Of a DNA stretch of 64,000 nucleotides, positions 3,448-59,224 are shown piece after piece (within the stretch, counting starts at the first letter, position 1; each line of letters begins with the position of its first letter). The notes under the pieces are model-generated. The model did not search any database. It was not told the origin of the DNA and worked only from the letters and a program-made list of their open reading frames with translations. Origin of the DNA: Dryococelus australis (lineage: Eukaryota; Arthropoda; Insecta; Phasmatodea; Phasmatidae); assembly GCA_029891345.1 (NCBI GenBank), contig CM056993.1:230483265-230547264 (forward strand), written 5' to 3'. A program made the translations under genes and the position numbers.

Positions 3448-3477
3448 TGGCTATACATCGTCATGAAATCATCAGTT

Positions 3478-4154: not shown

Positions 4155-4285
4155 GTTTTACGACGACCAGAAGCAATAAAATGAAGTGCCATGCAAAACC
4201 TGCAATCCATATGATGCAGATCTCTAACGAGTTAACACATGCTAGCGAGGTTTCTTCTGTGGTATCGGCTTCAAAGTCAATCGTC

Positions 4286-5527: not shown

Positions 5528-5605
5528 GAACAGTGTAGAATATATATATATATCTGGTCATGCACGATAACTGTTTAGTTGTATTTGAGCATTGCCATCT
5601 TCAAG

Positions 5606-6155: not shown

Positions 6156-6174
6156 AAAAAAATGACATGAACAG

Positions 6175-6668: not shown

Positions 6669-6679
6669 CTGAAATATGA

Positions 6680-7294
6680 AACAGTAAGATCAGGACGATG
6701 GGTCAGATGCGGATTTGCCACAAAAGAAGAAAGTATGGCAGAGAGTCCTGAAATCTAATGCTTTGGCTCATGGTACCTACGATTGTACAGGTCTCGCAAT
6801 AATGATACAATGTGTGGAGTATACAGGCATAATGATTAATGGTTCCTCGGTGCTTATGAAATAGAGTTTCTACCAGGTGGAAACATCGAGTTGGCAATTA
6901 CATGGTACATGGAACCCCCGGACTACACGAACTTTTATTTTGCAAGGAGCCCATGGACTTTACAGAATCCGACCTCCTGGAACAAAAGACTTTGCTCTAA
7001 CTCACACACGCACTTTTACAAGATAACGACACAGAGACCGATGTTTATGACTAAGATCACGAGAAAATCTCCATTCTCGCAGATCTCCTCAGCGGCCTAG
7101 AACTGAAAAGCGGCGTAGGTGTGAAGAAGATAGACGACGGCAAGACCATCGACTAGGCATTCTGGGACGGCCCGAACGATCTGGTGGATAGGCTGCAGCT
7201 ACTGCTGGCTTCGCAAAGTGTTGGAAATTACTCTCACACCAACGAGATAGTTTCAGCCATCGAAGAACTTCAGGAGGTGGACTACATAATATGA
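6680..7294 (+). pseudogene. Second, inverted copy of the DPNEL protein gene
   Basis: This stretch is the reverse-oriented counterpart of 38609-39240 in element 2. It contains 'DADLPQKKKV', 'MAITWYMEPPDYTNFYFARS' and, after a frameshift near 7085, 'DLLSGLELKSG', 'WDGPNDLVDRLQLLLASQ' and 'SHTNEIVSAIEELQE', ending at TGA 7292-7294. An in-frame TAG interrupts it just before the DPN motif. Because the first copy lies on the minus strand at 1-714, the element has the gene at both ends in opposite orientations, as if its long TIR once reached this far inward. The stop codon overlaps an ATG (ATGA), the same junction seen between this gene and the integrase in element 2. Confidence 0.7.
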
Positions 7295-7311
7295 GTCGAT
7301 TGGTCATCGCT

Positions 7312-7377
7312 GGCTTCAAGTGGTGGCGTTTCCCTGCCCGCTTCAATTCCTGGGTCGTCGAGGCGGACATCGAGTGA
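7312..7377 (+). pseudogene. 3' tail of integrase (chromodomain-like end)
   Basis: The translation 'FKWWRFPARFNSWVVEADIE' followed by two stops matches the last residues of the integrase in element 2 ('IKWWGFPAHYNSWVAEVDIE'). The rest of the integrase is deleted, so the tail lies 17 bp after the DPNEL stop. Confidence 0.8.
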
Positions 7378-23034: not shown

Positions 23035-23625
23035 AGTAGGATTTAGTATGTTTGGGCGCAAGGGCATCGGACATTGGAGCCAGAGCCAATGGAGCCACCA
23101 TCTTGTTACGTCACCGATCGTCATCTTAGATGTCATTGACCTTTCATCCCTGACCGTGTGACCTTTAACCTTGACCTTGGATCTGTGGACCTTTGACCTC
23201 AAAAACACTAACAAACCTTAAACAATTCCAAAAAACCTAAACAAATTCCAAAGAAATTTATTATTAAAAATTATTTTAAAAATTACTAAAAGGATCCACA
23301 GAAATGACCGAGTTTTTTTCGGAAATGCTTACAGGGATCAGTCACTCCAGTGACTGGGATCAGTGACTCCGAGCCAAGTGACTGGGTGACCTTAACCTTT
23401 GACCTTGAATATGCAAAAATCCTAAAGAATCTAAAAAAAAAACCCACAAAAAATCACAAAAAAATATAAATCGACTAAAACTATTTATGGAAAATTTGTT
23501 ACTAAAACTTGTTATTAATTAAAAAACCGTTTAAAAAACTAAAAAAATGTTGAAAAATTAATTTTTGTAAAATGGTATTAATTATTTTTTTTTAATTCAA
23601 AAGGCTTTAACCCCGGCGGCCATAT
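23035..23625 (+). repeat. Loose fragment of a Maverick-like TIR
   Basis: Begins AGTAGGATTTAGTATG and then follows element 2's left TIR (36435-36995) colinearly: 'GAGCCACCATCTTGTTACGT', 'TGACCTTTGACCTCAAAAAC'-type blocks, a CAGTGACT stretch and 'AAAAGGCTTTAACCCCGGCG'. It ends there without any viral gene. Confidence 0.75.
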
Positions 23626-36428: not shown

Positions 36429-36434
36429 TATGAG
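36429..36434. repeat. Left target-site duplication TATGAG
   Basis: Identical to 45259-45264 across the element; marks integrase-mediated insertion. Confidence 0.9.
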
Positions 36435-37760
36435 AGTAGTATAGATATGCCGTTTTGGGGGCATCGACGTCTGGCACAGGAGCCAGAGCCGGGGAAGCCA
36501 CCATCTTGTTACATCACCCGACCGCCATCTTGGATTTCATTGACATTTCACCCCCGACCCGCGTGACCTTTGACCTTGATCTTTTGACCTTTGACCTCAA
36601 AAACACTAACATTAAACAATTCCAAAAATTCGAAAGAATTCTAAAAAATCTGAAAAATTTGTTATAAAAATCATTTTAAAAGACATTAAAAGGATCCACA
36701 GAAATGACCCATTTCCCCCATAAATCCTGACAGGGATTAGCGACCCAGGTGCCAGGGATCAGCAAGCCAGACCCAGGTGACCAGGAGAGTGGTATCAGTA
36801 CTTATGACCTTTGACTTTGACCTTTAACAAAATAACGAAATAAAAATCTATTAAAAAATTTAAAAAAAATTACTATTAAAATTCAATTAAAATAGTCAAA
36901 AAAATTTTAAAAAATTATTTTAAAATCCATTTTTTATAATTTTATTTTAAAATCGCTTAATTAAAAAGCCTTTAACCCTGGTGGTCATTTATCCCTTTTT
37001 GCCCTCGAAATTTTCCTTTTCCCCTAAAAATTTTCCTCAAGAAATGTTTTAATTAAAAAATTGTTTAAAAAATTTTAATTAAAAAACTTACATTTACAGA
37101 GGTCTCACCCCGCACCACCAATTACTCAACTCTGTTCGAATCCATCAGACGACTGACTCCATCGCCTCCACTCCCCTCACATATACTCATTCCGCTATTT
37201 TGATTTTTTCATTAATTTGTTTACATGCTACTAGAAACAGCCATATTGGTTTATATGTTACTGGAGGTCGCCATTTTTGTGTATATGTTACTGGAGGTGG
37301 CCGTATTTGTTTTTTCGTACATAATTTGTTTAAATATGTTACTGAAGGTGGCCATATTTGTTTTTATCGTATATCATTTGTTTATGTTACTGGAGGCTCC
37401 CATGTTAGGAGGCAGCCTTCTTTCTAGGTGTAGTCCTCCATGTTTTTTATTGTTGTTTGTTTTATAGTTTCTCTCTCACATTTGTGCGACAACCCGATTA
37501 TGTCACCTGATATAGGTCTGTACCAAATAGTGACATTGACCATTCCTGCAAAGTACTTACATTTATTTATTATTTTCAATTCTTATTTATAAAGTGGGAA
37601 AGGTTTTTTGAAATAAAACATGGCGTATATATTTTTTAAATTTATTGTACACATAATAAATATATACAGGTTTATCAATCTTCTTCGACGTTCACCGCTC
37701 GATGTCCACCTCGGCGACCCAGGAATTGTAGTGGGCAGGGAAACCCCACCACTTGATGTA
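36435..37760. repeat. Left terminal inverted repeat of element 2
   Basis: Contains, outward to inward: the AGTAGTATAG terminus; a 'GTCTGGCACAGGAGCCAGAG' block; repeated 'TGACCTTTGACCT' motifs; an AT-rich core; the 'GTTCGAATCCATCAGACGAC' block; the TIR minisatellite; and finally the last 65-70 bp of the integrase gene, which also reappears at the inner edge of the right arm. The arms differ by many substitutions and small indels. Confidence 0.88.
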
Positions 37761-38612
37761 GGCCCTTCCATTATGCCATTTCAGCACCTTTTCCACCAAA
37801 TACATGTCTGGAAACTTCGTCGGCTGGATCTCCTCGGTTTTGAAACTGCCATGGATGGGTACGTTGTTCAGATCTTCGAAATAGCAGGTCCTATGAGCAT
37901 AGTTATGTGTATGTGGCACACGAAACAGTTCGGGGCTCCAAGTTGCTGCGAACCCTTTATCGAAGACACCTTTCTGTTTGGAGATGCACACCAGGTCACC
38001 GATATTGGCTTTAGGCTTGCGTGAGTCCTTCCTCTTCGGAATAGTATACACAGTCCGAACCAGGGAGTCGTCCTTGACATCCTCGGGCTTCATGCGAGTG
38101 GACGAGTGCACTGCAGAATTATACTCACGTACAAGTTTCGGCAGTAGCTTAAGCCACTTGTAGCTATCATTTGCTGCGAATTGCTTCCACATCTTGCCAT
38201 TCAGAGTCCTGTTAAACATCTCGACAATTTAAGCTTTGAGATTACTGTATGTGGAATAATGATTTATGTTATGTTTCTTCATCAGGGCCTTGAACTTTGC
38301 ATTGTAGAATTCCTTGCCCTGGTCGGTTTCCAAATTGGCTGGGCTGTGTCCATCGCTCAACACATCCACGATGGCCTCAGTGACGTGACGTGCATTCTTC
38401 GACTTGACCAGCCTGGCCCTGGCGAATTTGCTATAGGCATCGATGACTGTCAACATGTATTTGTAGCCTTTGTTGTCTTGAGCATACAGCATCATATCGA
38501 CGAGGTCAGCTTGAAACAGATCATTCGTCCCACAAATTATGACCTTGCGATGGAGGTAGTTGCGCCTGGCAGCTGCATGCAGTTCATTGGCAATACCCAA
38601 TTGATTAATCAT
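37692..38612 (-). pseudogene. Retroviral-type (rve) integrase with chromodomain-like tail
   Basis: Integrases of this type insert the linear element and create the 6-bp duplication. From the ATG at 38612, the 306-codon frame has 'ANELHAAARRNYLHRK', then the DDE core: first Asp in 'DLFQADLVDMM', second Asp in 'LETDQGKEFYN', and the Glu in 'IVEMFNRTLNGKMWK'. The C-terminal part has 'ANIGDLVCISKQKG' (SH3-like integrase domain) and ends 'YIKWWGFPAHYNSWVAEVD', a chromodomain-like module. A single in-frame TAA at 38229-38231, just before the catalytic Glu region, is the only lesion found. The start overlaps the DPNEL stop as ATGA. Best preserved gene of the element. Confidence 0.9.
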
Positions 38613-39452
38613 ATGTAGCCTGCCTCCTTAAGTTCTTCAATGATTGAAACTATCTTTTTGGCGTGGGAGTAATTTCCAAAATTTTGTGATGCAAGCAGTA
38701 GCTGCAGCCTACCGACCAGCTCGTTTGGATCGTCCCAAAACATATAATCAATGCTCTTGCTGTTATCTATCTTCTTCAGACCTTCACCGCTTTTCAGTGC
38801 TAGGCTGCTGAAGAGGTCTGCAAGAATCTCGATATTTTTGTGATCTTCATTCTTATATACACCGGTCTCGAGATCATTGTCTTGGTAAAGTGCATGCATA
38901 AGTTTCAGTAAAGTCTTACATCCCATCAGGCCGGATTCTGTGAAACCCCAGGGGCTCCTTGCGAAATAAATGTTCGTATAGTCTGGGGGTTCCACGTACC
39001 ATGTAATTGCCAACTCGGGTGCTTTCTCCTGGTAGAAACTCTATATCATCAGCACCGAGGAACCATTTATCATTATACCTGTATATGCAGTATGTAGTTT
39101 CATTATTATGAGATGTGTACAATTGTAGGTCCCGTCGAGCTAAAGATTAGATTTCAGTGCTCTCTTCCGTACTTTCTTATTCTGTGGCAAATCCACATCC
39201 GATCCATTATCTTGATCGCACTGTACTTCATTATACTTTTGCTTCTGCAAAGGCTTATCGGTATTGTCGATTCTGGACTTCACAGCTATGGGTGCCCCAT
39301 AGCTCTCCCTGAGTACATCGAGATGATGAGTAACGGGCTTAAAAATTTCTTCATTTGTATGGTCACATAAAATTTTGGCTCTTTGGCGATCAAATATTTT
39401 AATCAGACAGACTGAATAACTCGATGTAGTTTGCTGACAATGTCCGCCAAAA
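38609..39452 (-). pseudogene. DPNEL-type conserved viral protein
   Basis: Minus-strand gene directly upstream of the integrase. N-terminal part: 'HLDVLRESYGAPIAVKS' and a basic 'PQNKKVRKRALKSN'; after a stop and a frameshift near 39120, 'SHNNETTYCIYRYNDKWFLG' and 'GTPRLYE'; then the open C-terminal half with 'FARSPWGFTESGLMG', 'LADLFSSLALKSG', the signature 'DDPNELVGRLQLLLASQ' and 'KKIVSIIEELKEAGYI'. The TGA stop overlaps the integrase ATG (ATGA), a layout kept in element 1. The family recurs beside integrases in invertebrate Maverick-like elements; no catalytic motif is visible and its function is unknown. The start is placed by homology, since no ATG survives there. Confidence 0.75.
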
Positions 39453-39492
39453 TACTGGATAAAAATTCTCAGTCTCGCTCTATGTTATAGGT

Positions 39493-40021
39493 TTAGTCAT
39501 TAGTCTCCTCCAACTTACTTTCGATCTTGTTCAGACATTTGCTGTAATTTTGAATATCTGTTTTTCGTACCGAGTTAGGAAATTATGGTATCGAATGTAT
39601 GTATCATATATATTTCCAGGTTTTTCAGATTCTCTTCATTTTGTGCAGATGCTACATTAAATATGTCGATAATTTGCCTTTGAACACTCGTTACATACTC
39701 TTCCATGGCCACCATATTGTGCACGATCTCCATCTTCACATGCTCCATCTTTGCTCCGAGCTCGGATAGGTAGTTTTGAAAGAATGCGTTTTGTTCAGTC
39801 AACAATCTGCGCAGTTCCTAATTGATGTCATTACCAGTTTCGAGTACGAAATGTTTAGTAGCAGCATCCCCAGAATGTTCGCGTTCACCAACATTTGGAA
39901 TTATTCTTCTACCAACATTACAAGTTCCATCATCCCCTGGTACGAGAAAACCGCCATAGTTTTCTGTATGATGGGGTACCTTGAGGCTACTCTACCCGAA
40001 TTTCGATATGCTGTAACTCAT
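39493..40021 (-). pseudogene. Small helical, possibly coiled-coil viral protein
   Basis: Homologue of 757-1307. From the ATG at 40021 it reads 'MSYSISKFG', a stop, a Gly-rich segment 'GTCNVGRRIIPNVGEREHSG', then the open helical part 'MEHVKMEIVHNMVAMEEYV' and 'FNVASAQNEENLK', ending near TAA 39493-39495. It has three or four in-frame stops. A TATA box (40068-40076, minus) sits 47 bp before the ATG, suggesting separate transcription from the ATPase. Confidence 0.6.
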
Positions 40022-40067
40022 TCTCGACGGCTGGCAATGAGCTGATCGAACCCACACCTGAATCTCC

Positions 40068-40076
40068 CTTTATATA
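40068..40076 (-). promoter_or_regulatory. TATA box of the small helical protein gene, element 2
   Basis: Minus strand TATATAAAG within CCCCTATATAAAGGGAG, 47 bp upstream of the ATG at 40021; element 1 has GTATAATGGG at the equivalent site. Confidence 0.5.
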
Positions 40077-40089
40077 GGGGGCAGTCCTT

Positions 40090-40640
40090 TATGATCGTCA
40101 AAAATCCATATTTGTCTTTCCCACACAAAGCACACATTCATATGAAATCTGATAGTGTCATGTCCGTATTTACATGGTCGTCATAAATGTGATGTAAATT
40201 AGTGTCGTCCATGCGAAACAACACCAACACATAAGCACTATCGCGAAACATCTGTATGGGTATGCGCGAATTAGTCTGGTTGATATACACGCAGTCCCAT
40301 ACTAAAGTATTTTTGAATGTAAGTCTGTTTTTTGCAGGCAATGTTGTCGAAGACAAACATCTAGTTTCGCAGTGCTTCGTTCGGAGGTACGATGGCTTCG
40401 TTATCGCTGCATGAGACATGCCTTTCACGGCCTGCAGTACTCGTGCCAATCGTCGGTATTGCGGTTGCTGGAGTGATTTGGAGTAAAGGTAAATGTTATC
40501 AAACTGGAGACCTTTCTCTTCTTCCAACAGGCTCAGTAGGACGCATGTTTTCCCACAGTTTGATAGTCCTGCGATGATGCACCTGACTGTATTCGGAAAT
40601 AGGCTTCCATGCCACGATTGGTGGGATATATCTTGATCGT
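40090..40640 (-). pseudogene. Viral genome-packaging ATPase (FtsK/A32-like)
   Basis: The minus-strand frame reads 'SLFPNTVRCIIAGLSNCGKT', an intact Walker A (GLSNCGKT), then 'LLEEEKGLQFDNIYLYSKSL' and 'QPQYRRLARVLQAVKGM'. After a frameshift comes the Walker B region 'MFVFDNIAC' (Asn where element 1 has Asp), then 'IYDDHVNTDMTLSDFI' and 'GKDKYGFL'. A deletion removes part of the segment after Walker B. In the family this ATPase translocates DNA into preformed capsids. It is divergently arranged with the PLA2 gene across a GGT-rich tract. Start by homology with element 1. Confidence 0.8.
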
Positions 40641-40706
40641 CAGCATTAATGCATATGGGTAGAGTAACATTTTTCGTGATAATATGTATATTACAACTTC
40701 AATATT

Positions 40707-40811
40707 CTGATGGCGGTGACGGAGGCGGTGGTGGCGGTAGCAGCTGTGGTGGTGGCAGAGGTGGTGGCAGTGGCGGAGGCAGCGGCGGCGGTGGTGGTGG
40801 CGGTGGTGGTG
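40707..40811. repeat. (GGTGGC)n low-complexity tract between ATPase and PLA2 genes
   Basis: Runs of GGCGGT/GGTGGC; on the plus strand it would encode poly-Gly, on the minus strand Pro/Thr/Ala. It replaces the GATTGTGGAGCA array found at the same place in element 1. Confidence 0.9.
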
Positions 40812-40959
40812 GAGAACTAATGCTGAAAATTTTAGAATGTCTCTTTAAAGTATCGCATCGAGAATACATCTTCTAACAGAATTCGCACCAAAATGTCATA
40901 TTGGAATATACGATGCTTCCATACTGTTCCAAGTATAGACTGATACTGAAACGGAAATG

Positions 40960-40967
40960 TATAAAAG
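40960..40967 (+). promoter_or_regulatory. TATA box of the PLA2 gene, element 2
   Basis: TATAAAAG in AATGTATAAAAGGAGCATAT, 44 bp upstream of the ATG at 41004. Element 1 has a mutated TATGAAAAGG at the same distance. Confidence 0.6.
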
Positions 40968-41003
40968 GAGCATATTTATACTTTTCTCACTGAGTTCACC
41001 ACG

Positions 41004-41633
41004 ATGTCTCGAAGAGGTAAATGGGGACATCGATACGCTGATCGTCAATCTACCATTCGAGCTGCACATTTCTTGTTAGAGATTCTGGGGGCCAGGAACC
41101 AAGCTAGCTAAAATATTGTCACACAATGAAACTGGCATAAACGCCCTGGATGATGATTCCCAGCTCAAAGATCCCCAAGCCAGACACTGGGCAGACAAGA
41201 TTCTTGCACAGAAGGTGGGCGAAATAAGAGAATCATCAGATGCTGGGCTCTGCGAAAAAAAATAGCAGCGTGGTGTGTTTCCAACTTGATGAATGCCAAA
41301 GTGAAGATGGGCATGGGTGATAAGAACATAAGGAAAGCACAAGTGAAAATAAAAGCAGTTACAAAAAGAAGAAAAGCCACCAAGTCTAAGGAATTATCTA
41401 CCAGTGGATTTTTTCCATTGCTTTTGTCCGCACTCGCAGCCTCTGGAGGCCTAATCGGAGCAACGTGTGGTATCGCCCGAGACATAAAAGACAGAATACA
41501 AGTATGGAAGCTATCGCCATGGGTAAAAAAAAATTGGGCAAGGCCTCTAACTAAGATCATACCCAGTAGGAGGCGGAAGTGTGCAAAAGCGGCACAGCAG
41601 GAAGAAACCAAAATAAAATCTTTACCGAAATGA
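41004..41633 (+). pseudogene. PLA2-minor virion fusion protein
   Basis: Starts 'MSRRGKWG' after a conserved TATA box. The PLA2 part keeps a calcium-loop-like 'WGPGTKLA' but the stretch that should carry the His-Asp active site is deleted ('NALDDDSQLKD'), so the enzyme is dead. One frame then runs through 'MNAKVKMGMGDKNIRKAQVK', 'STSGFFPLLLSALAASGGLI' and 'GATCGIARDI' to 'KSLPK' and TGA at 41631-41633, showing that PLA2 and the basic/hydrophobic minor protein are one gene of about 210 codons. There is a stop near codon 20 and a one-base shift before the basic part. The TGA overlaps the protease ATG (ATGA, 41630-41633). Confidence 0.75.
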
Positions 41634-41971
41634 GCACTCACGAATGTGGATTTGGAACTATTTGCACGCAAATTTAAAATACCTCATTTCAACACAGTGT
41701 TTATGAGAGATACCTCTAAACCCAACAGAGAAGAATGTGCCGTAATTAATCTGGATATGATAGCAGGGCCCAGCATACACTGGGTAGCCTACGTAAAAAG
41801 GGAAAAGACGCAGACTATTATGATAGTTTTAGGAATTTGCATCCTCCTCCCGAATTGCGAAAGTACCTGAAAAATTGTAATCTAACTTACAATTACGAAA
41901 TGGAGTAGCTGCCTAACATATGGAACTGCAGACATTTGTGCCTTCACTTCCTGGTTCGCTCGTACAAGTAA
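41630..41971 (+). pseudogene. Adenain-like cysteine protease (C5/Ulp1 fold)
   Basis: Begins with ATG overlapping the previous stop. After a frameshift: 'LFARKFKIPHFNTVFMRDT', 'CAVINLDMIAGPSIHWVAYV' with the catalytic His, 'YYDSFRNLHPPPELRKYL' with the Asp, and 'WNCRHLCLHFLVRSYK' with the catalytic Cys (the usual Gly after Cys is Arg here). Two frameshifts and a stop are present. It would cleave virion precursors. It ends at TAA 41969-41971, three bases before the TATA box of the next gene. Confidence 0.8.
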
Positions 41972-41974
41972 TTG

Positions 41975-41982
41975 TATAAAAA
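41975..41982 (+). promoter_or_regulatory. TATA box of the penton-like gene, element 2
   Basis: TATAAAAA in ATTGTATAAAAAGGCTACAC, 28 bp before the ATG at 42010; conserved with 3441-3447. Confidence 0.65.
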
Positions 41983-42009
41983 GGCTACACCGCAAGGAAA
42001 CCATCAGTC

Positions 42010-42699
42010 ATGTTTATAATGCTTATCTTGACGGGTCATAGCTCCAAGCTGCGTGTAGTACATTTTCCGCCACTCGACCTGGTGGGAGAATGGAGCATAG
42101 GCCTTGTCGATTTTCAAACTTACAATGCGATAACCAACATTGATGAAAAAAACTGCACGCTGCACCTCGTAAAAACTGGTAATGTTTCCCATGAAGTTTC
42201 GCTGCCCATTGGCTCTTATGATAAAGGCAATATTGCAAGGTAAATTGAAGATTCGCTGCCACCCGACAAGGAATTCGGACTACAGTGGAATCCCAATACT
42301 CTGAAGAGAGTTATCAGATGAAATGAAGATATAGTCTTTACGAAACCGGACACCATCGGACAGATGCTGGTGTTCGAGCCATGCATCTACGAAGCTGGTA
42401 AAACACATGTGTCGTCATAGCCTGTAAATATTTTGTCAGTCAAAATGATACGAATAACCTGCAATTTGGCGAGTCGCACATACCTTAACAGCAGACCGAA
42501 CAATACACTGCACGAATTTTCGCCTATGGTCCCTCTCTATTATAAACTGGTCATGGCACTGCAAAGCATCATTTATGTTCCGGTCGTAGTGAAGAGAGCA
42601 CACGAGGTGGTCGTGACAGTTGTCGACCAGAGCAAAGAGTTGGTGAATGTTCGAAATGAAGAAATCGCCCTCTGCATGCATTTGAGAAGATGGGTATAA
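42010..42699 (+). pseudogene. Penton-like minor capsid protein
   Basis: From the ATG at 42010: 'LDLVGEWSIGLVDFQTYNAI', 'NIDEKNCTLHLVKTGNVSHE' and, after stops, 'CIYEAGKTH', then 'YLNSRPNNTLHEFSPMVPLY' and 'LQSIIYVPVVVKRAHEVVVT', ending 'LRRWV'. Three in-frame stops (near 42240, 42320 and 42418) break it, with no shift needed in the second half. About 229 codons. The family pairs with the double-jelly-roll protein encoded next and probably forms the vertices. Confidence 0.72.
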
Positions 42700-42831
42700 G
42701 ATTTACACCGACCAGAAGCTATAAAAGAATGTGTCGTGCAAAACCTACCATCAGTACATCACAGGTCTCCAAGGAGTTAACACGTGCTAGCGAGATTATC
42801 CTCTGCAGTCTCGGCTACGAGGTCGATTGCC

Positions 42832-44070
42832 ATGGGAGATTTCCTAAACTATGAAGAGCCAACCATTTTCGAAGACAGCATAACGAAGTTGGAACTTCAT
42901 GCGTAACAGCTGTTCCTGATCGGGCTGTACATACTACCATTGGAGATAGTGGTCCAACACCAAGATATCTGCACTCTTCCTTGCCAGCCTTTCCTGCAAA
43001 TCAGGGAAACTGACGAAAGAAGATGGGACCAATCCAACATCGACGAAAATAATTAGTAATGGAATTCTTCACCTGATTGATCACATCGGCTACTTTCTCA
43101 ATGGTGCCGAGGTGGACCAGTCGCGAGATGTGGGCATACCCTAAATAATCAAAAATCACCTTTCGCTCACGCCGAATGAGCTGCCTGCAGCCAAGGTGGC
43201 AGGCTGGGGAATCGAAGATGGCTACAGTGTTCCCATTTATGTCGAAGGAAGGTTCAAAGTATGTTTTACACTCTCAATGCTATTGGGATTTGCCGAAGAC
43301 TACAAACAAATTATCTTCAATTTGAAGCAGTAGCTGGTAATAATGCCCACCAATACACATTTGGATAACATAGTGGGTATGGGGGAAAACCTGGAAGCAG
43401 TGGAACTGAACCTACAGTCTATAGAATGGATGCTGCCTCATGTGCAGTTGAGCACTGCAGAATGCCTACACATGTTGAAGAATGTGGAAGATGGTAAAAA
43501 CATCGATGCAGCTTTCAGGTCGTGGAGTCTGGAGACATACCCCGGATTGCTGCAAGCCAGCGCATTAACTGGATGGTGAAAACCAGCTTTGCTTCTGAGA
43601 AACCAAGGTACATCGTTGTTGGGTTACAGACCGGAAGACAGCACAATTTAAGAGTGAGCTGTTCACAGTTCGACACATGCCAAATAGAAAATGTCAAAAT
43701 ATTTTTGAATAGCGAAAGCTACCCGTACGTAGACATGAACACGAACTTTGTAAATAGCCAATACCTGCTGGCATATCAGAAGTACTCTCAATTCCAAACT
43801 GCATATTATGGATGCACCCAATCTCCGATATTGAGCCCTGATACGTTCAAGAGTTTGGCCCCGCTCATGGTATTCGATTTGAGTAAACAGGACGAGTATA
43901 TTACCTCTAATGTGATCGACTGCAGGATCGAATTCACTACACATGACAATATTCCTGCCAATACATATGCATTTTGCCTGATACTTCATGACACGCTTGT
44001 ATCTTACAATTGCCGAGACAGAACCATCAAAATACCATCATGTGCGCAGCTGACTCTTCCAACACCATAA
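42832..44070 (+). pseudogene. Double-jelly-roll major capsid protein
   Basis: ATG at 42832 opens 'MGDFLNYEEPTIFEDSITKL'. The middle part has 'FLNGAEVDQSRDVGIP' and 'SMLLGFAEDYKQIIFNLK'; 43343-43579 has 'LQSIEWMLPHVQLS' and 'AAFRSWSLETYP'; the open 3' part from 43522 carries 'FLNSESYPYVDMNTNF', 'YYGCTQSPILSPDTFK' and 'IPANTYAFCLILHD'. Frameshifts near 43020 and 43550 and a few stops interrupt it. This is the clearest capsid marker of the window. The gene ends 20-40 bp before the right TIR, so the HGLEWD gene present downstream in element 1 has been deleted here. Confidence 0.88.
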
Positions 44071-44092
44071 CAGTTTACTCGTCTTCAAGCAT

Positions 44093-45258
44093 CGCCATCT
44101 TCAAGTGGTGGGGTTTCCCGCTACAATTCCTGAGTAGCCGATGCGGACAACGAGCGGTGAACGCAATGAAGATTAATTAACCTGTATATATTTTATTACG
44201 TGTACAATAAATTCTATGTTAAATAATCGGAACGTTGCACAAAGGTGAGAGACAAACTATAAAACAAATGACAGTAAAACACATGGAGGACTGCACTTAG
44301 CAATATGGCTGCCTCCTAATATGGCAGCCTCCAGAAACATATGTAAACACATGATGTACGAAAAAAAAGAAATATGGCCACCTCCAGTAACACGTATAAA
44401 CAAATGATGTACGAAAAAAACAAATATTGCCACCTCCAGGAACATATACACAAACATGGTGGCCTCCAGTAACATAACCACAAAGATGGCGACCTCCAGT
44501 AACATATAAACAAATATGGCTGCCTCTTGTAACATGTAAACAAATGACGAAAATTAAAATCAAGATGGCATAATGAGTATATGTGAGTAGAGTGGAGGAG
44601 AGGGAGTCAGTCGTCTGCTGGATTCGAACAGAGGTGAGTAATTGGGGTTTCGGGGGAGACCTCTGGAAATGTAAGTATTTTAATTAAAATTTTAAAAACA
44701 ATTTTTTAATAAAAAAAAATAACAGAGGGAAAATTTTATGGAAAAAGGTAATTTCAAGGGGGGAAAAGCGATAAATGGCCACTGGGGTTAAAGACTTTTT
44801 AATTAAAAGATTTTTAAAATAAAATTTTATAAAAATAAATTTTAAAACAATTTTTTAAAATTTTAATCGACTTTTGAATTAAATGTTTTAATATAATATT
44901 TTTTATAAATCTTTTAATTGATTTTTAATTTTTTGTGAGTTTTTAAAAATTGTTTGTATTTTTTGGGTCATTTCTGCGGATCCTTTAAAAAATTTTTCAA
45001 AATTTTTTTTAATAATTAAAAATAATTTCTAATAATAAATTTTTTCGGACTTTAAAAAAAAAAATCGAATTTTTTTTTTAGTGTTTTTGAGGTCAAAGGT
45101 GCACAGGGTCAACGTCAAAGGTCACACAGGTTGGGGGGGGGGTGAAAGGACAATGACATCCAAGATGGTGTTCGGGTGACGTGACAAGATGACGGTTACC
45201 CCGGCTCCGGCTCAGGTGCCAGACGCCAATGTCCTCAAACCGGCATATCTATACTACT
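44093..45258. repeat. Right terminal inverted repeat of element 2
   Basis: Reverse complement of 36435-37760, including an integrase tail at 44110-44160 ('FKWWGFP…' then frameshifted). The minisatellite (44290-44545) and the terminal CTATACTACT are clear. Confidence 0.88.
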
Positions 45259-45264
45259 TATGAG
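45259..45264. repeat. Right target-site duplication TATGAG
   Basis: Identical to 36429-36434. Confidence 0.9.
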
Positions 45265-51529: not shown

Positions 51530-52940
51530 AGTAGTATAGTTCTCATGTTCTGGGACATGATTCATGAGTAGGATTCGGGATTCGCCCGCCATCTTGGATG
51601 ATGTCACAACCACTATCTTGGATTCCGTGTCCTTCACCTTGACCTTTGTCAGCTGTCTTGTAACATGCCGCCATATTGTTTTGCCTGTTATCTTGTTTCC
51701 AGTCGCCATTTTTTTCCACCTGTCATGTTGTTCACGTCCTCCTTCTAGCTCCAACAGCCATTTTGTTTTCAACCACCATTTTGTTGTCGCTCACAATATT
51801 GTAAATCTTGTTTCTGTCCATCATATTGTTTCCGCCTGTCATCCTGTTTCCACCCACAATCTTGTCTCTGCCTACAAACTTATTCACCAATTACTCAACT
51901 TTGTTTCACCCCGCCATCTTGCTTTCATTTGTCCTTCGTTAAAATACCACCTGCTAGGAGCGTTGGTGTCGCTCTCGCTCGGTCGCTATGTTTCTCCTGG
52001 AGTTGACCGCTAGGAGCAGTGCCATTTAATTATCGCAAATCTAAAAATATCATCTGGAGTAGGGCGGGATCAAACTGCCGAACCTTGGGTCGTCAACATT
52101 GTCGACCCCTTAGACCACTCGGCCACCGAGACAGGTAGGGATATAAGGTTTTAAATGTGGTTTATGCATTGTTACACTCCTCACCCACTCAGAAAATTAT
52201 AAAAAATTGTAAATAATAAAAACTATAATTTTAAAAATCGAGGAAATATAACATTAACTCACACTCACACCACAGCCCCCTACCCCTTTCACTGCCCTCA
52301 CCACAACTCTCCCAATAAAAAAGAATAGAAAGAAATTAATAAAATAAATCTAAAAATCGAGGAACATATAATATAACCCACCCTACACCCCCAAAGTCAC
52401 TTCAACCCTCCGCTTTAATAATAATCGAAATAATAGTTTTAAAAATCGAGGAACATATAATGAAAACCCACCTACACCTCCACAACCCTAACCAACAAAC
52501 ACCTCTGCACCCTATACTCATGCTCCTCTCCCAAAATTAACCATGGGCATAAAGTAACAAATTATTCCTTCACCCATACTAATCAAGTTTATCTGCCTAG
52601 TGGCAACTAAATTACACCTTTAACACATATATCTTTGCCATTATTGGATACTAGATAATATCTGTAACTATTTTTTCAAGCATCAACTGCAAGAGATAAA
52701 TTACTGCCGGAAAGAGTGCTATCGACTTGTATCGAATGGCGACTATACTCCCTGCAAAGTATGCAAATTAATATATTTAATTATTTTGTTTTATTTTGAA
52801 ACATAATTGATTTTAATTTAAATATTTTGTATTAAAATTAAAGTTTTTTAATAAATAAAACATACCATATTAAAAAAATCTAATTTTATTTGCTAATGTA
52901 CGAAATGAAGAAACGCATAAGCACATTTGAAAATTGATCT
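51530..52940. repeat. Left terminal inverted repeat of element 3
   Basis: Matches 59225-60691 in reverse complement: 'TTCTGGGACATGATTCATGA' near the end, many 'CATCTTG'-bearing short repeats, the tRNA-like segment, roughly 100-bp units holding 'AAAAATCGAGGAACATATAA', and an inner AT-rich part. Confidence 0.85.
52064..52135 (-). repeat. tRNA-Ser/Leu-like segment in left TIR of element 3
   Basis: On the minus strand: TCGGTGGCCGAGTGGTCTAA (A box GGCCGAGTGG) and GCAGTTTGATCCCGCCC (B box). The acceptor ends do not pair, so this is a tRNA-derived repeat, not a working tRNA gene. Confidence 0.6.
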
Positions 52941-52993
52941 TTTACACTTTGTTTTGTGTATTGGAAGGCACTGTATCCTTGCGAGTCCTTAGT

Positions 52994-53280
52994 TCAGGGG
53001 TGAATCCAGAAATTTTTTCGGGGAGGAGCTGAATATTTTTCCCCCATTTATTCAGAAAACTAAGTTTTGATGTATATGAGGAAATCATATGTGCAGTTAA
53101 TAACAAGCAGATAAATATAAAGATTCCCATTTTAATATAGGATGTAAAAAATGTGTAATATGGGTAGTAACAAATATATAGATATCTTTATTGACTTTTG
53201 ATGATAGGGTTTAAACAAATGTTACAATTTGGGGGGGGGGGGGTGGCTGCAGCCCCCTCAGCCCCACTGGATACGTCCCT
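52994..53280. mobile_element. MITE with CAGGGGTGAATCCAG ends inside element 3
   Basis: Starts CAGGGGTGAATCCAGAAATT and ends CCACTGGATACGTCCCTTT, inverted relatives, with a G-run of 14 in between. This end type is widespread in animal hAT-like MITEs. The 8-bp flanks CCTTAGTT and TTTTTATT agree at 5 of 8 positions. Confidence 0.5.
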
Positions 53281-54054
53281 TTTTTATTTCCATGGGTGAT
53301 CGGTGTATTGTTTAAAACACTGTTTGCAGACACGAACTTTGTGCCCATGCAGAGTAATCTGTGAGTTAGCCAGTTGTGAAATGTTTTTTATGTAACAATA
53401 ATGTGAAATGTTCTTTATTTCGTCCTTCAGGTTTCTCGATATTAATCACACATGTTGGCACCACTATTCCCCTAGCATTCTCAGAGTACATATTTACGCA
53501 CACACCAAGGTTGTTGTTCTCAAACACCCTCATTTGCGCAGATGAATTGAAAAATCAAGTACTTTAAAATAAATCTTTGCTTTCACCTCGACATAAATTT
53601 TGCCCACACACTGCGGGTGCGATGACTTAACAAATACAGCCAACATTGAACACTTGAAACATTGGTTGTCATAAGTGTGGGGATTGATTATGGCATGTTC
53701 GTGTTTGATAAAGTTTGAAAGGTCAACATATGTCGATAACTTACTGTGGTATTTCCTAATGGGGGAAGGCCACGCAATCAAATAGGGTTTATGCATAAGC
53801 AAAACATGTGAAGCACTCTTACAAGATGTAGCTTTAAATTAATGGCAATGTCATGTCTAATCTCTTTATATAAAACTCAATCAAAATACAATTGACACAA
53901 CTTATACAATCTTTACATTACTTTAAAGTGGGGGAGTTGATTCATATAATTAACACAATTATTATCAGCCATGATACCAGTGTATAATAAAGTCTGTGCA
54001 GTAACTCAAACGATATCACCTTGTTAATGATGTCTAAGGCTGCTTGCAGAAGTC
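53281..54054. other. Element 3 internal sequence without recognised gene
   Basis: AT-rich, several short frames on both strands, none conserved in elements 1 or 2. Confidence 0.45.
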
Positions 54055-54900
54055 TTAGGTGGCAGCTGTCCAGCGGCAGGCCAGCGACAGGCCGTGCTTC
54101 AGTCCTCTGCGCACGCTAAATACTCTGTCCCGGATTGTTACGAATATCTGTATCAATAAAATCTCGCTGCTCGTGGCCTCGTCATGAATACTATCGTGGT
54201 TGGGATGGTTTCCAGCCAAGCGCAGGAGACAGCTTGGTAAATCACAGCGCTGTGGAGGTTTAATCTCTATGTTACATGGCGGAAACCCATTGCACATATT
54301 CATATGCAACCTCAGACCATCCTGCCACTACGTCGACACCCCGCACTTCAAACACATGTACTGTATTTGGGTAGGGCTCTCTATACAGCCATGGTTATCA
54401 TGTCGTTGGATTTTGCTGCTACAAGCTAAGGCATTTTCACAAAAGCGACATTTGCAACTTTGGAATGGTTCAGCAGAGGTGTTTGTCCATACAGTTATTT
54501 CTGGAAGAGATATCGATGGTCCAGTTGGCGATGCAGTTGTCACAGCTGAAGAACTGGATGACACTTTTGCAGTCCACATGTCAAACATCCCCAAAGACCC
54601 TGGAAATTCTGGTAGACACGTAGATGCCTCAGCCGAAGACGTATATTGATATGACTAAAGAGGAAGAAGTCGATGGCACTTCTGGTACCACACACACACA
54701 AAGAAGACGAAAGTGGCATTGGTACCATGCCCAATAGCAGATGACAGTGGTGCTAATGTAGGCAGCCCATCCGAAGAGGTCGATGGCGATGCTACTTTAG
54801 GCATGCTGCTAGAAAAAGTAGATGGCACTGCTGATACCAGTCCCGAAGAAGTCGATGGTACTGCCATAGCTACCATTAGCTCTAGAATTTCTGAATACAT
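54055..54900 (-). pseudogene. Possible Ser/Thr-rich, zinc-finger-like viral protein
   Basis: Three minus-strand frames in series (54655-54900, 54540-54734 / 54328-54594, 54055-54309) look like one gene with frameshifts. The N-terminal part is Ser/Pro/Thr-rich with 'AVPSTSSG'-type repeats. The central part has 'CKCRFCENALACSSKIQRHD' followed by 'NHGC' and 'YMCLKCG', Cys/His spacing suggestive of zinc fingers. The C-terminal part is basic. It has no counterpart in elements 1 or 2 as seen here. A plus-strand Asp/Glu-rich frame at 54713-54937 overlaps it and cannot be excluded as the true one. Function unknown; DNA binding would be a guess. Confidence 0.4.
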
Positions 54901-54939
54901 CGCAGATGCAAAATATGTCGTCGACTGTAAAAGCTAAAT

Positions 54940-55317
54940 GAGGCAATAAACACTTCCTTCGACAAACTGGAGATCCCCCACAAGGTGCCACTATTTATAC
55001 CGATTGCATCCCCCCTTCCTTATATTCTTCCCTCTGCAACTCCATACCCTCTCCCTTCCATCTGACACACTGCCTGGTGTGTCACCTGGCAAAGATCGTA
55101 AACCTGAAATCACGTGTACATTCCCTGGACCATCTGTGCGAATTCAACCTACATCAGCATTGCCCCATGGATTATATAGTCTTTCTTTAAGTCTTATGAA
55201 TAAGGGTAAAACCATAATAATAAAATAGTTGTACACACACAAAATTTGTTTTACATATAAATACATAACTGCCTTAAGACAAAAAGTATTCAGTTTCTGT
55301 TCATGTTTGAAAAAATA
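54940..55317. other. Spacer between zinc-finger-like and HGLEWD genes
   Basis: Pyrimidine-rich and AT-rich; no conserved coding block seen. Confidence 0.45.
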
Positions 55318-55798
55318 ATGTTCTTCGGAACCATCATCATGATGACTTCTTGTCTAGCCCTAGGCGGCAGATTCATGGTCCAAGGACAAGGCACACTATT
55401 TCCACAGCAGCTATGCATTTCTCCATTCGTGTGTCCAGTCAGGTTCTGATCTTTCTCAGTCATGTTGCTGCTGGTCGTCGAAAAGTTTCACCAGCTTGCA
55501 CAACAAAGGTCACCTGTACTCGAACTGCAGGTCGATGATTTCAACTTCGTTTTTACACAAGTCGCTTACCATTTTTTTCTGTTCGGGTCTCGTCATGTAA
55601 GTTAGTCCTCATGGATACTGCATCAGCAAGTCATGCAGCACGTTTCCCACTTGGTGGTACAGAATCTTACCTTCGTCCCACTCCAGTCCGTGATGGTACT
55701 TGGTCAGCCAGTTGTTAGTCTTCTTGCTTTTCTCGTCCAACAGTTTCCTTGAGCACGGTAACACTCTGGTTCGAGAAGTATTGTAGATTACAGTACAT
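55318..55798 (-). pseudogene. HGLEWD-type conserved viral protein
   Basis: Starts at the ATG complementary to 55796-55798, in a start region colinear with element 1 ('MYCNLQYFSNQS', then 'VLKE'). About 60-70 bp are then deleted and the frame resumes with 'KLLDEKSKKTNNWLTKYHHG' and 'HGLEWDEG', 'YHQVGNVLHDLLMQYP', and later 'VEIIDLQFEYR'. At least three stops follow. Same family as 5606-6155, with the H-G-L-E-W-D motif intact here. Function unknown. Confidence 0.65.
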
Positions 55799-56775
55799 CC
55801 TTGGGCTGTGTACATCTGATATGCCAGCAGATACTGACTCTTTTAAAAGTTCGTGTTCATGTCCACCTATGGATAGATTGCACTATTCAAATATATTTCC
55901 ACATATTCTATTTGATATGTGTCGAACTGTGAACAGCTCACTCTCACATTGTGCTGGCTTCCACTCTATAGCCTAATGATGACGTACCTTGGTTTCTTGA
56001 TGGCAAAACTGGACTTAACCATCCAGTTGATGTGCTAGCTTGTGGGCAATCCAGGGTAGGTCTTGAGACTCCACGACCTGAGGGCCACATCAATGTTTTT
56101 GTCACCTTCCACATTCTTGAGCATCTTAAAGCATTCGGTAGTACTCAGCTGAACATGATGCATCATTCCTTCATATACTGTAGCTTCAGTTCCACTGTAT
56201 CTAGGTTTTTTTCCGTACTCATGATAGAATCTGCATGCGTATTTGTTATGAACAGTACCAGTTACTGCTTTGATGCTAATTCGTTTCTAGTCTTCAGCAA
56301 ATCCCAGTAACATCGCAATATGAATGCAGACCTCGAAATTGACCTCAGGATGAACAGGAACACTGTATTAATCTTTTATCCCCCCAGCCTACCATCTTGG
56401 CCACAGACAGCTTGTTAGGCATGAGCGAGAGGTAATCTTTGATCGAGGTCGTTATGCTGAAATCTCTCGTCTGGTGTACCTCGACACCATTGAGCAAATA
56501 TATTATGTGATCGATAAAGTAGAATGTCAGTGCTCGTTATTTTCGTCGATGCCAGATTAGATCCATTTTTTGTCAATGTCCCACTGAATCGTAAGAATGA
56601 CTGACAAGGCAGAGTGCAGATATTTTGGTGTTGGATCACTATCCGAACTTCCGATGGTAACATGCATAATCCGATCAGGGATGGCTGGTATCATGAAATT
56701 CCACTTTCGTGATGCTGTCAACAAATTGTCCAGCTATTGATGTTTATGTAATCTTCCAAGGCGAGCGACCTTGAA
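55799..56775 (-). pseudogene. Double-jelly-roll major capsid protein, C-terminus deleted
   Basis: Minus strand. Recognisable parts: 'SEVRIVIQHQNICTLP' followed by 'QSFLRFSGTLTK', a decayed 'LLGFAED', 'HHVQLSTTECFKMLKNVEG' and 'SWSLKTYPGLP', then 'INWMVKSSFAIKKPRYVII' and 'SQYLLAYQMYTAQG'. The protein breaks off after that point and is joined to the start of the HGLEWD gene, so roughly the last 90 codons are missing. Several frameshifts and stops. The start is by homology with element 2. Confidence 0.75.
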
Positions 56776-56877
56776 ACCAAGACTACAAAGAAAAATATAG
56801 TTGGCACATGGTGTACTGATCACTGGTTCTATGTGGTGCTTTGTTTTATTATGCCTGGTCGCTGTAAATATTATTCC

Positions 56878-57552
56878 CATGTTCTCAAATGCAAGCATAG
56901 TGTTGATTCTTTCATTTCGAAAGTTCACCAACTCTCAGTGCTGGTCGACGATCGTCACTACCACCTCGTGTGCTCTCTTTGCGATGACTGGAATGAAAAT
57001 GATGTTTTGCAGTGCCACAACCAGTTTCGAACCTCGAGGGACTATCGGCGAAAACTTGTGCAGCGCATTGCTTGGCCTACCGTTGAGGTATGTACTGTCC
57101 ACCAAATTGTAGTTAATTTGTATAACATTAACAGGGAAGATGTTTATGGGTCGCGACCATTCGTGAGTTTTGTCGGGTTCATATATGCTGGGCTTGAATC
57201 CCAGTATCGTTCCGATGGAGTCCGGTTTCGTAAAGTCGATATATTCACTGCATCTGATGACACTCTTCAGAGTACAGGAATTTCCACATAGTTCGAATTC
57301 TGTATCGGGAAACAACAAATCATCGATGCACCTTGCTATTTCATCTAGTTCGTAAGAGCCAGTGGGCAATGTTATCGCACGAGAGACATTACTGCTTTTC
57401 ACGAGATACAGCTTGCAGTTTTTTTCATCGATGTTCGGTATCGCATTGTAGGTTTGAAAATCAACCAAACCTATGCACCATTCCCCTTTCAGGTCGAGTG
57501 GAGGAAAGTGTACAGCAGGCATCTATGAAATACGACCCATCAAGGTAAGCAT
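56878..57552 (-). pseudogene. Penton-like minor capsid protein, best-preserved copy
   Basis: A 195-codon uninterrupted stretch (57522-56935) reads 'HFPPLDLKGEWCIGLVDFQT', 'LYLVKSSNVSRAITLPTGSY', 'GFKPSIYEPDKTHEWSRP' and 'LQNIIFIPVIAKRAHEVVVT', then one TGA stop after 'VDQH', after which the frame resumes 'ELVNFRNERIN'. The original ATG is probably at 57552, aligned with 42010 in element 2, with one stop shortly after it. Composition and alternating hydrophobic pattern suit an all-beta jelly roll. This is the copy to use for structural comparison. Confidence 0.75.
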
Positions 57553-57565
57553 TATCGAAACAATT

Positions 57566-57946
57566 AATAGTTCCTGGTACATGAATAGCCATTTTATTAA
57601 ATTACTTGGACGAACGAACAAGGAAGCGAAGTGTCTACAGCTTCATGTTATCAGTATCTGCTCCAACTCGTCGTAGTAGGTCAGTTTGCAATTTTTCAGG
57701 TACTGCTGCAGTTTGGGTGGATGATGCATGTTCCCAAAACTGTCATAGTAGTTAGCAGATTTTCCACATTTCACTTAAGTTACCCAGTGAGTACAGAACC
57801 CGGCTATCATGTCCAGGTTCATTACAGCATATTCGTCACATTTGGCTTTAGGGGGCAAACCATTTCACATGAACACACAGCAAAAATTAGGTATCTTGAA
57901 TTTGCGTGAAATCAGTTGCAAATCTATGTTCGTGAGAGGTAGTTAT
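57566..57946 (-). pseudogene. Adenain-like cysteine protease
   Basis: Minus strand: 'SRKFKIPNFCCVFM', 'MNLDMIAGFCTHWV' with the catalytic His, 'YYDSFGNMHHPPKLQQYL' with the Asp, and a decayed Cys motif 'SCRHF' where others have 'NC(G/R)HLCL'. Two or more stops. It lies between the penton-like gene and the minor virion gene as in the other elements. Confidence 0.7.
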
Positions 57947-58614
57947 GGTAGATATTTTATTATTATCTCTTCCTACTGCATAGCTTTTGCACACTTCCGC
58001 CTCCTACTGGATCTTAGGTAGAGGCCTTGGCCATTTTTTACCCATGGCAATGGCTTCCATATTTGCATTGTGCCTTTGGGCCTCGGAAAACTGATCCAAT
58101 TCGTTCGATGCTGTTTCGATGGCTCGGACAATTATGCTCGTGTCTCCAATTAAGCCCCTGAGGGGCCCAATTGCTGGCAAAAGTAGTGGAAAAATGCACT
58201 GGTAGATGATTTATTGATCTTGCATGCTTTTATTCCCTTATTCATCACTTTTAATTTTACTTGTGCCTTCTGCTTGCTCTTTGTACTCTGCCCATCTTCA
58301 CCTTGGCCTTCATTATATTGGAAACGCCCCACACTTCTATTTTTTCTCTGAGTCCGGTATCTGACGATTTTCTTATCTCGTCGGCCCTGTGTGCGAATAT
58401 ATTGTCAGCCTTGTGGCGTGCTGGTAGATCCTTGTACTGGGAATTGGCAATATATCGTTGTTTACACGATTCGTCCAGCACATTGATGCCTGTGTTGTGA
58501 TGTGAAAACCTTTAGGCTATCTTTGTTCCTGGCCCACAGAACTTGTATCCAGGAATGTACATCTCAAATGATAGATTGTTGATCAGCTATGTTCTTACCA
58601 CTTTGAGGCATCAT
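57947..58614 (-). pseudogene. PLA2-minor virion fusion protein
   Basis: Minus strand from the ATG near 58614. The calcium loop is the best of the three copies ('IPGYKFCGPGTKIA'), but the active site reads 'DESCKQRYIANSQ': the catalytic His and Asp are Arg and Tyr, so it is inactive. The same frame runs on through 'LREKIEVWGVSNIMKAKVKM' into the Lys-rich part, 'SSTSAFFHYF', and after a shift 'RPKGTMQIWKPLPWVKN' and 'KYLP'. This shows the PLA2 and minor virion parts as one gene. A stop after the calcium loop and frameshifts in the second half break it. Confidence 0.72.
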
Positions 58615-58784
58615 GATAAACTAACCAAAAAACTTATAAATTAGCTTCTTTCATACTTTTGCTTCAGTATAATTCTAGACTTGGAATGGTATGGACATAA
58701 AGTGGCAATGATGCGTTTTGTTTGCCGCTTCTGCTGTAAAGCATTTACAGCTTTGCGGAATTTGCACAAACATGATCAAACGAC
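58615..58784 (-). promoter_or_regulatory. Upstream region of the PLA2 gene, element 3
   Basis: Reverse complement aligns with 2196-2380 of element 1 ('TTTATCCTGCAGGT', 'TGTGCAAATTC.GCAAAGCTG', 'CAAGTCTAGAAT'), so the divergent promoter region survives, although the ATPase beyond it is deleted. Confidence 0.6.
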
Positions 58785-59193
58785 CTGCAGGATGAAAACC
58801 GTTCATCCGCTGTGATGCTTTATAGAGACATTGGACCATGTATGCCGTTCCGAAGAGGATGGACTCACTCAAGCTGAAAGCCAAAATTGACGACCTGGTA
58901 TGCATCTCAAAAAGGAAGGCTTCTTCTAAAAGGGTTCACATTGAATTGGAGCCCAGAATTGTTTCGTGTGCAAGGTATACACAATTAGGCTCCGAGGACC
59001 TACTATCTTGAAGATCAGAACAATGTTCCCATCCATGGCAGTGACTACAACAGTAGATCCAGCATACTAAGTTTCCAGATGTGGATTTAGTCGAGAATGT
59101 GCTTAAACGATGTAACATAAGGGTGTACATCAAAGGTGGGGTTTCCCTACCCACTACAATTACTGGATCGCTGTAGTGGACATCAAGAAGTGA
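58785..59193 (+). pseudogene. Integrase, C-terminal fragment
   Basis: Plus-strand relic homologous to the last 130 residues of the element 2 integrase: 'VYAVPKRMDSLKLKAKIDDL', 'VCISKRKAS', 'FTLNWSPELFRVQG', 'YYLEDQNNVPIHGS' and a decayed 'KVGFPYPLQLLD' tail ending near TGA 59191-59193. The DDE catalytic core is missing, joined directly to the PLA2 upstream region. It sits just inside the right TIR, as expected from element 2. Confidence 0.75.
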
Positions 59194-59224
59194 ACTCGCA
59201 GTGGGAGAGGGAGATGTAAATAGA

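What the first reader, a model, noticed from the sequence alone, without database searches (positions are those of the whole stretch)
36429..45264. Complete 8.8-kb Maverick-like element with capsid genes but no DNA polymerase B
The element has exact ends (AGTAGTATAG), long inverted repeats and a perfect 6-bp duplication, so nothing is missing from its outside. Inside are integrase, packaging ATPase, protease, two capsid proteins and PLA2, but no PolB and no room for one. Canonical Polintons encode PolB and are about twice as long. All three copies in the window lack it, so this could be a PolB-less lineage that depends on host or helper replication, as some satellite viruses do, rather than one deletion.
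Basis: partly seen in the sequence, partly recalled or inferred. Interest (0 to 1): 0.88.

Follow-up and report, generated by a model that had tools for sequence, protein, structure and literature searches.

The report
Capsid-bearing Maverick lineage lacking its polymerase
In a large insect-like genome a family of virus-like jumping elements keeps its shell-building and integration genes but has lost its own DNA polymerase, and its tips closely match those of other elements in the same genome that still carry one, which suggests it was copied with borrowed polymerase.

Summary
The 8.8-kb element B (36435-45258) is real: ends AGTAGTATAG, inverted repeats of about 1.2 kb, perfect duplication TATGAG, integrase, ATPase, protease, putative penton and double-jelly-roll capsid genes, and no trace of PolB. 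"All three copies lack PolB" is wrong: copy C is a complete element (51530-60691) with an N-terminal PolB remnant inside its own repeats, behind the capsid gene; copy A is cut by the window edge. In the own genome (3.4 Gb), 8 of 8 sampled capsid loci show no convincing PolB; L044 and L045 repeat B's gene set and its capsid-to-repeat junction. Their capsid genes evolved under purifying selection (pairwise dN/dS 0.36-0.48; control medians 0.85-1.04). So the loss looks older than these copies, and the lineage spread afterwards with working capsids. A PolB-bearing 10.8-kb Maverick lineage in the same genome has almost the same tips (18 of 20 bases), though its proteins are only about 23-50% identical. 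Best reading: a polymerase-dependent, satellite-like Maverick lineage, now fossil. Dependence on that helper is inferred, not shown, and PolB-bearing copies with B's exact repeats were looked for only in a small sample.

The parts
36429..36434 (.). target site duplication TATGAG, left
36435..37756 (+). left terminal inverted repeat of B; its inner end overlaps the 3' end of the integrase gene
37692..38627 (-). integrase: core 38229-38627 (PF00665 1.2e-12) and C-terminal part 37692-38228 with a weak, below-cut-off chromo match
   Evidence: separate open pieces
38609..39484 (-). integrase N-terminal region / unknown pieces, conserved in other copies
39575..39817 (-). coiled-coil-like piece (label by eye), conserved in other copies
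40138..40698 (-). packaging ATPase (Pfam matches below cut-off: ATPase_2, Pox_A32)
   Evidence: homologues at the same place in other copies
41000..41633 (+). PLA2-like gene, degenerate in B (domain recognised in copy A)
41634..41930 (+). cysteine protease (by position and by eye; no Pfam match for the piece)
41980..42854 (+). putative minor capsid (penton) gene, by position and conservation
42950..44070 (+). major capsid protein, double jelly roll, in several pieces
44101..45258 (-). right terminal inverted repeat of B; begins 31 bp after the capsid frame
45259..45264 (.). target site duplication TATGAG, right
51530..60691 (-). copy C: complete related element, ends AGTAGTATAG / AGTATTATAG, flanks AAGGCT / AAGATT (4 of 6 alike)
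53218..53838 (-). PolB N-terminal remnant inside copy C, same strand as its capsid gene (matched span 53218-53778; open frame to 53838)
55281..55748 (-). block behind the capsid gene of C, shared with copy A (5724-6190) and L049; no match in B
1..8340 (+). copy A, left part outside the window; no PolB match in the visible part
23051..23382 (+). lone fragment of a B-type terminal repeat

Best explanation
B belongs to a lineage of insect-type Mavericks that lost its protein-primed polymerase, most simply by a deletion between the capsid gene and the right terminal repeat, before the copies B, L044, L045 and L048 separated. The lineage went on spreading with its own integrase, packaging ATPase, protease and capsid. 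Shown: complete ends and target duplication; no PolB in B; further insertions without PolB; purifying selection on the capsid gene; PolB-bearing Mavericks in the same genome, including a remnant inside copy C; near-identical terminal 18-20 bases between B and a PolB-bearing lineage (lineage 3). Inferred: that the DNA was copied from its ends by a PolB supplied in trans (lineage 3 is the best candidate), packaged in its own capsids, and inserted by its own integrase. The copies read here are broken fossils.
For: No match in B or in 8 of 8 sampled capsid loci with 149 PolB pieces of this genome. With 120 outside PolB proteins, 5 of the 8 have no hit at E<=0.01; L046, L048 and L049 have 1, 2 and 3 weak ones, of which those shown overlap or adjoin capsid, ATPase or protease matches. 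L045 is a second complete ~8.5-kb element with the same gene order and an 81% inverted repeat of ~1.26 kb; L044 has the same gene set; in B, L044 and L045 the capsid match ends 31, 37 and 34 bp from the repeat. Capsid dN/dS 0.36, 0.48 and 0.41 over 388, 396 and 393 codons for B/L044, B/L045 and L044/L045; medians of eight other gene pieces 0.38-0.66, of four pseudo-coding controls 0.85, 1.02, 0.85 and 1.04. Helper candidate: C1:6833726-6844549, 10.8 kb between ends AGTAGTATAGAAATGCCG; in the 4 kb read from its left part PolB fills the first 2.8 kb and a capsid gene follows on the other strand. The end of this kind in L007 matches B in 18 of the first 20 bases, in L003 17 of 20, then both fall to chance. 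Lineage 2, closer to lineage 3 than to B in 6 of 7 gene pieces, matches B's end only over the first 9 bases.
Against: Trans replication is not shown. Shared ends may reflect integrase recognition or a general Maverick end motif ((AGT)2 is common, PMC8097293). For B against L044 and L045 the other pieces are mixed: ATPase 0.42, 0.45, but integrase pieces 0.47-1.03, protease 0.85, 0.88, penton pieces 0.46-0.99, PX 0.50, 1.18; selection after the loss is firm mainly for the capsid gene. One antisense control pair (B/L045, 0.47) is as low as the coding value. Deeper comparisons may include time when ancestors still had PolB. Only 10 kb around each of 8 capsid loci was read. Of 7 listed near-exact end pairs one is 14.5 kb and unread. 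Lineage 3's PolB is itself broken into several frames, and whether both lineages were active at the same time is unknown.
Confidence: 0.55

Rival explanations
1. B-type elements are ordinary non-autonomous deletion derivatives: one PolB-less copy was amplified passively by PolB-bearing relatives and its other genes are passengers.
For: PolB-bearing relatives exist; still shorter derivatives with exact ends exist (3.4 and 3.5 kb); several small gene pieces of B against L044/L045 have dN/dS near 1.
Against: Capsid gene dN/dS 0.36-0.48 between PolB-less copies and the gene set kept in order; no PolB-bearing element with B's whole repeat was seen in the small sample.
Confidence: 0.2
2. Each copy was inserted with PolB and lost it afterwards by separate decay.
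For: Copy C shows a partly deleted PolB inside its repeats; copies are old and broken.
Against: B, L044 and L045 share the same tight capsid-to-repeat junction and gave no PolB hit.
Confidence: 0.08
3. The lineage needs no PolB at all: it moves by its integrase and is copied only by host replication.
For: Integrase retained; nothing tested here separates host from helper replication.
Against: Long inverted repeats and ends like those of a PolB lineage point to end-primed copying.
Confidence: 0.12

Closest known systems
Insect Mavericks, e.g. Sf Maverick 1 and 2 of Spodoptera frugiperda (PMC5803895; passages seen)
   Same: ATPase, integrase with chromodomain, PLA2-type CAP, protease, and a 404-aa ORF7 of the size of the capsid protein here; in Sf Maverick 2 the large PolB ORF follows the row of small ORFs (figure not seen)
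   Different: They carry a ~1160-aa PolB; B has none and its repeat begins right behind the capsid gene
Vertebrate Mavericks (PMC8097293; outline and first part of Results read)
   Same: 6-bp target duplication, (AGT)2 ends, two gene modules
   Different: Intact ones are 12.7-24.6 kb and have PolB
Polinton-like viruses, virophages and Tlr elements (PMC11071308; passages seen)
   Same: PLVs mostly lack the Polinton PolB but have capsid genes
   Different: They encode replacement replication proteins; none was found in B, which keeps the Polinton-type integrase
Satellite viruses with their own capsid (recalled)
   Same: Own capsid, borrowed replication, in the model
   Different: Dependence here is inferred; helper and satellite would both be Mavericks

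Membership tests
[quoted passage not shown]
Polinton/Maverick | retroviral-type integrase | tested here: met
   PF00665 1.2e-12
Polinton/Maverick | packaging ATPase and cysteine protease | tested here: inconclusive
   ATPase matches below cut-off, protease piece without Pfam match; conserved position in other copies
Polinton/Maverick | double-jelly-roll capsid protein | tested here: met
   PF21738 3.9e-48 in B, 1.6e-57 in A
Polinton/Maverick | protein-primed DNA polymerase B | tested here: not met
   no match in B; remnant only in copy C
Non-autonomous deletion derivative | PolB-bearing parent with the same whole repeats | tested here: inconclusive
   few end pairs seen and most not read; lineage 3 shares only the outermost ~29 bp
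Non-autonomous deletion derivative | remaining genes evolve neutrally | tested here: not met
   capsid dN/dS 0.36-0.48; mixed values in small pieces of other genes
Satellite virus | replication depends on a helper | not testable with these tools
   only end similarity to a PolB lineage
Satellite virus | own capsid gene | tested here: met

The most novel reading that the evidence does not exclude
A two-lineage system inside one animal genome: capsid-bearing, polymerase-less Mavericks that kept or acquired the outermost ~20 bases of a PolB-bearing Maverick lineage and were copied by its polymerase, as satellites of other Mavericks, while still being selected to build their own particles.
Probability: 0.35. 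Interest if true: 0.85.

Novelty: new variant of a known kind. Interest (0 to 1): 0.66.

Why it matters
Mavericks are described as self-synthesizing because they carry PolB. A lineage that dropped PolB but kept its capsid under selection would separate particle formation from self-replication in an animal element, would be a satellite-and-helper pair among Mavericks, and offers a test of what the polymerase reads: the ends shared by two lineages that share little else. Of seven literature searches, three were aimed at PolB loss or dependence (listings and abstract starts only) and their listings named no such lineage; the library lacks most subscription papers.

Tried and rejected
PF03175 counts as a census of PolB: rejected, since 54 matches from 91 scored candidates of 6289 missed the PolBs of L040 and of C1:6834700; likewise 126 of 126 capsid matches is a capped list from 18149 candidates.

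L026 (C1:271111830) first looked like a B-type element with PolB: integrase, ATPase, PLA2, protease and penton in B's order (mostly 69-77% DNA identity), then PolB. Not taken as the PolB parent: at L026 ~824 the penton passes straight into a PolB whose relatives sit in lineage 2, so a rearranged junction is more likely; not settled.

The second kind of PolB (16 of 30 fetched loci; endonuclease-VII domain confirmed by Pfam for L019 only) seemed free-standing: L019 has no Maverick gene piece in the 8 kb read on either side. L040 and L056 showed that this kind does occur in Mavericks.

IMG/VR for capsid relatives: 4 and 76 pattern stretches, no confirmed relative. Host name: capsid relatives with names are insects; the American cockroach assembly has 17 chromosomes, 3.23 Gb and N50 188 Mb (PMC12774602, passages), but contig 1 here is 403 Mb, so no name is claimed. 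A zinc-finger-like piece at 54283-54525 in copy C (27% to one near L019's PolB, E 4e-5) may belong to PolB or to an ATPase gene; left open.
Full report
What was checked. AGTAGTATAG occurs 3 times in the window against 0.12 expected; two of these are B's ends, flanked by TATGAG on both sides. Inverted arms run inward to 37756 and 44101 (74-85% with gaps; best ungapped blocks 83-91%, AT-rich ones 72-77%). Stop-to-stop pieces give integrase (PF00665, 1.2e-12), weak ATPase matches below cut-off, and a double-jelly-roll capsid protein (PF21738, 3.9e-48). The PLA2 gene of B is decayed; its domain is recognised in copy A (PF08398, 6.5e-6). Protease and penton labels rest on position, conservation and recall. 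Reading frames are broken: the longest piece used is 190 aa. B is a fossil.

PolB. B gives no match to 120 PolB proteins at E<=0.01 and none to 149 PolB pieces of the same genome at 1e-4. The window as a whole does hold a PolB remnant: 45 hits by 43 of 120 proteins at E<=0.01, all near 53 kb, against none in the reversed window. The best match is to residues 101-253 of P0158, a 1096-aa PolB relative. It lies inside copy C. C proved to be a complete element, 51530-60691, with main repeat blocks of 75-78% identity, ends AGTAGTATAG and AGTATTATAG, and flanks AAGGCT/AAGATT. In C's reading direction the order is integrase fragment, PLA2, protease, penton, capsid, a block shared with copy A and L049, PolB remnant, repeat. 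In Sf Maverick 2 the large PolB ORF likewise follows the small ORFs (PMC5803895, passage).

The own genome. The window lies in a 3.415-Gb assembly of 646 contigs. The end pattern AGTAGTATAGATATGCCG with at most one mismatch has 574 forward and 572 reverse matches, the reversed control none; 70 are exact. In the listing I paired facing ends less than 20 kb apart by hand: exact ends give 3522, 8824 (B), 3429, 10473 and 8054 bp; the listed one-mismatch ends (30 rows, contig 1 up to 55 Mb) give 14541, 10824, 10583, 11580, 576, 7246 and 8859 bp. Of these 30 rows 26 read AAATGCCG, the end of lineage 3 below, so most near-exact ends are probably not B's. A search with B's outer 326 bases gave 40 scored matches of 3158 candidates, B itself included, the nearest other 80% identical: the family is old.

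Other B-type copies. From the 126 capsid loci listed I took about every sixteenth (8 loci, L044-L051, 10 kb each). L045 is complete (inverted repeat 111-1371 / 8587-7342, 81%) with B's gene order. L044 has the same gene set and repeats interrupted on one side. L048 has lost the integrase region. L049 is rearranged and has the extra block behind the capsid gene. L050 shows only penton and capsid. L046, L047 and L051 are more distant. None of the 8 matches the 149 PolB pieces. With the outside proteins 5 of 8 have no hit at E<=0.01; L046 has 1 (0.006, next to its ATPase), L048 2 (best 4.1e-4, both inside its capsid gene), L049 3 (two shown, best 2.9e-4, at its ATPase and between PX and protease). 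In B, L044 and L045 the capsid match ends 31, 37 and 34 bp before the repeat.

Selection. Capsid codons, 341-401 mapped per copy, were compared in all 55 pairs of 11 copies; 12 pairs had no usable dS. B/L044, B/L045 and L044/L045 give dN/dS 0.36, 0.48 and 0.41; pairs of these with L048 0.41-0.47; all usable pairs 0.15-0.49. For eight pieces of other genes the medians are 0.38-0.66, pairs with under 35 codons or dS of 1.2 and more being dropped. For B against L044 and L045 the values are mixed: ATPase 0.42 and 0.45, integrase pieces 0.47-1.03, penton pieces 0.46-0.99, protease 0.85 and 0.88, PX 0.50 and 1.18. Four pseudo-coding controls (two repeat frames, two antisense frames) have medians 0.85 (one pair), 1.02, 0.85 and 1.04, with single pairs from 0.47 to 1.8; the antisense capsid control for B/L045 is 0.47, as low as its coding value, though for B/L044 it is 1.25. 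Since these copies are dead and their last decay is neutral, low values over some 390 capsid codons suggest that the gene was used while the lineage spread, provided that B, L044, L045 and L048 inherited the PolB-less state from one ancestor, as their common layout suggests.

PolB-bearing Mavericks in the same genome. Among 30 fetched PolB loci, 14 share one kind of PolB (62-80% over 48-87 aa to L026) and 16 another, to which L019 with its endonuclease-VII domain belongs. Lineage 2 (L052/L022/L053; L054/L030/L055): PLA2, protease, integrase, BRO-like and matrixin genes, ATPase, PolB of the first kind; ends AGTAGTATAT, target site GTTAAC in the L030 copy. Lineage 3 (L040/L043, L001, L002, L006; C1:6833726-6844549): PolB of the second kind, capsid gene on the other strand (28% over 82 residues to B), ATPase and penton near the right end; 10.8 kb in that copy, of which 4 kb were read. 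Its PolB is broken into several frames. Its end in L007 agrees with B in 18, 9, 5, 3 and 7 of 20 bases in successive blocks (24 of the first 29), in L003 17, 9, 6, 3 and 6. Lineages 2 and 3 are closer to each other than to lineage 1 in 6 of 7 gene pieces, one of them narrowly; an integrase piece goes slightly the other way. Yet lineage 2 shares only the first 9 end bases with B (11 of 20 by eye), and copy C's end agrees with lineage 3 in 13 of 20 and with B in 15 of 20 (by eye). So B's tip fits lineage 3 better than gene relationship predicts. That is expected if B-type elements were copied by lineage 3's polymerase; recognition by integrase, or retention by chance, would also do.

Relatives elsewhere. 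The intact 408-aa capsid frame of L046 finds 184 proteins, 120 listed; named ones are in wasps, an ant, beetles, a leafhopper and an adelgid. One listed capsid protein and one listed PolB lie on contigs of equal length, 14440 bp (P0115, P0183), which hints at, but does not prove, a PolB-bearing relative of this capsid type.

Verdict. A real and complete PolB-less Maverick, one of several insertions of a lineage that lost PolB and appears to have gone on under capsid selection; its relatives had PolB, and a relic of one is in the window. The satellite reading is the best single model, but the helper is inferred.

Noticed in passing
L052:5455-7233 (-): Lineage 2 Maverick with a matrixin metalloprotease (PF00413 6e-17) and a BRO-N gene (PF02498 4e-14) between integrase and ATPase; the 9-kb stretch is 26% GC.
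   Followed up: partly
L026:~824: Penton sequence of a B-like element passes directly into a PolB of the lineage-2 kind; rearrangement or PolB transfer between lineages.
   Followed up: partly
window:36435-37756 and 44101-45258: The two repeat arms of B are only 74-85% identical with gaps, a larger difference than nonsynonymous sites between B and L044 (dN 0.08); the arms may not have been identical at insertion or may mutate faster.
   Followed up: no
window:5724-6190, 55281-55748; L049:8539-9179: A block of about 0.5-0.6 kb behind the capsid gene, found in A, C and L049 among the copies held; possible extra gene.
   Followed up: partly
G000:C1:19460090-19460617: AGTAGTATAG repeated every 37 bases: a tandem array, probably unrelated to element ends.
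   Followed up: no
L011, L013, L016, L017, L020: PolB loci of the second kind, 87-89% identical over most of 4.2 kb, among the most alike PolB copies seen; wider flanks were not read.
   Followed up: no
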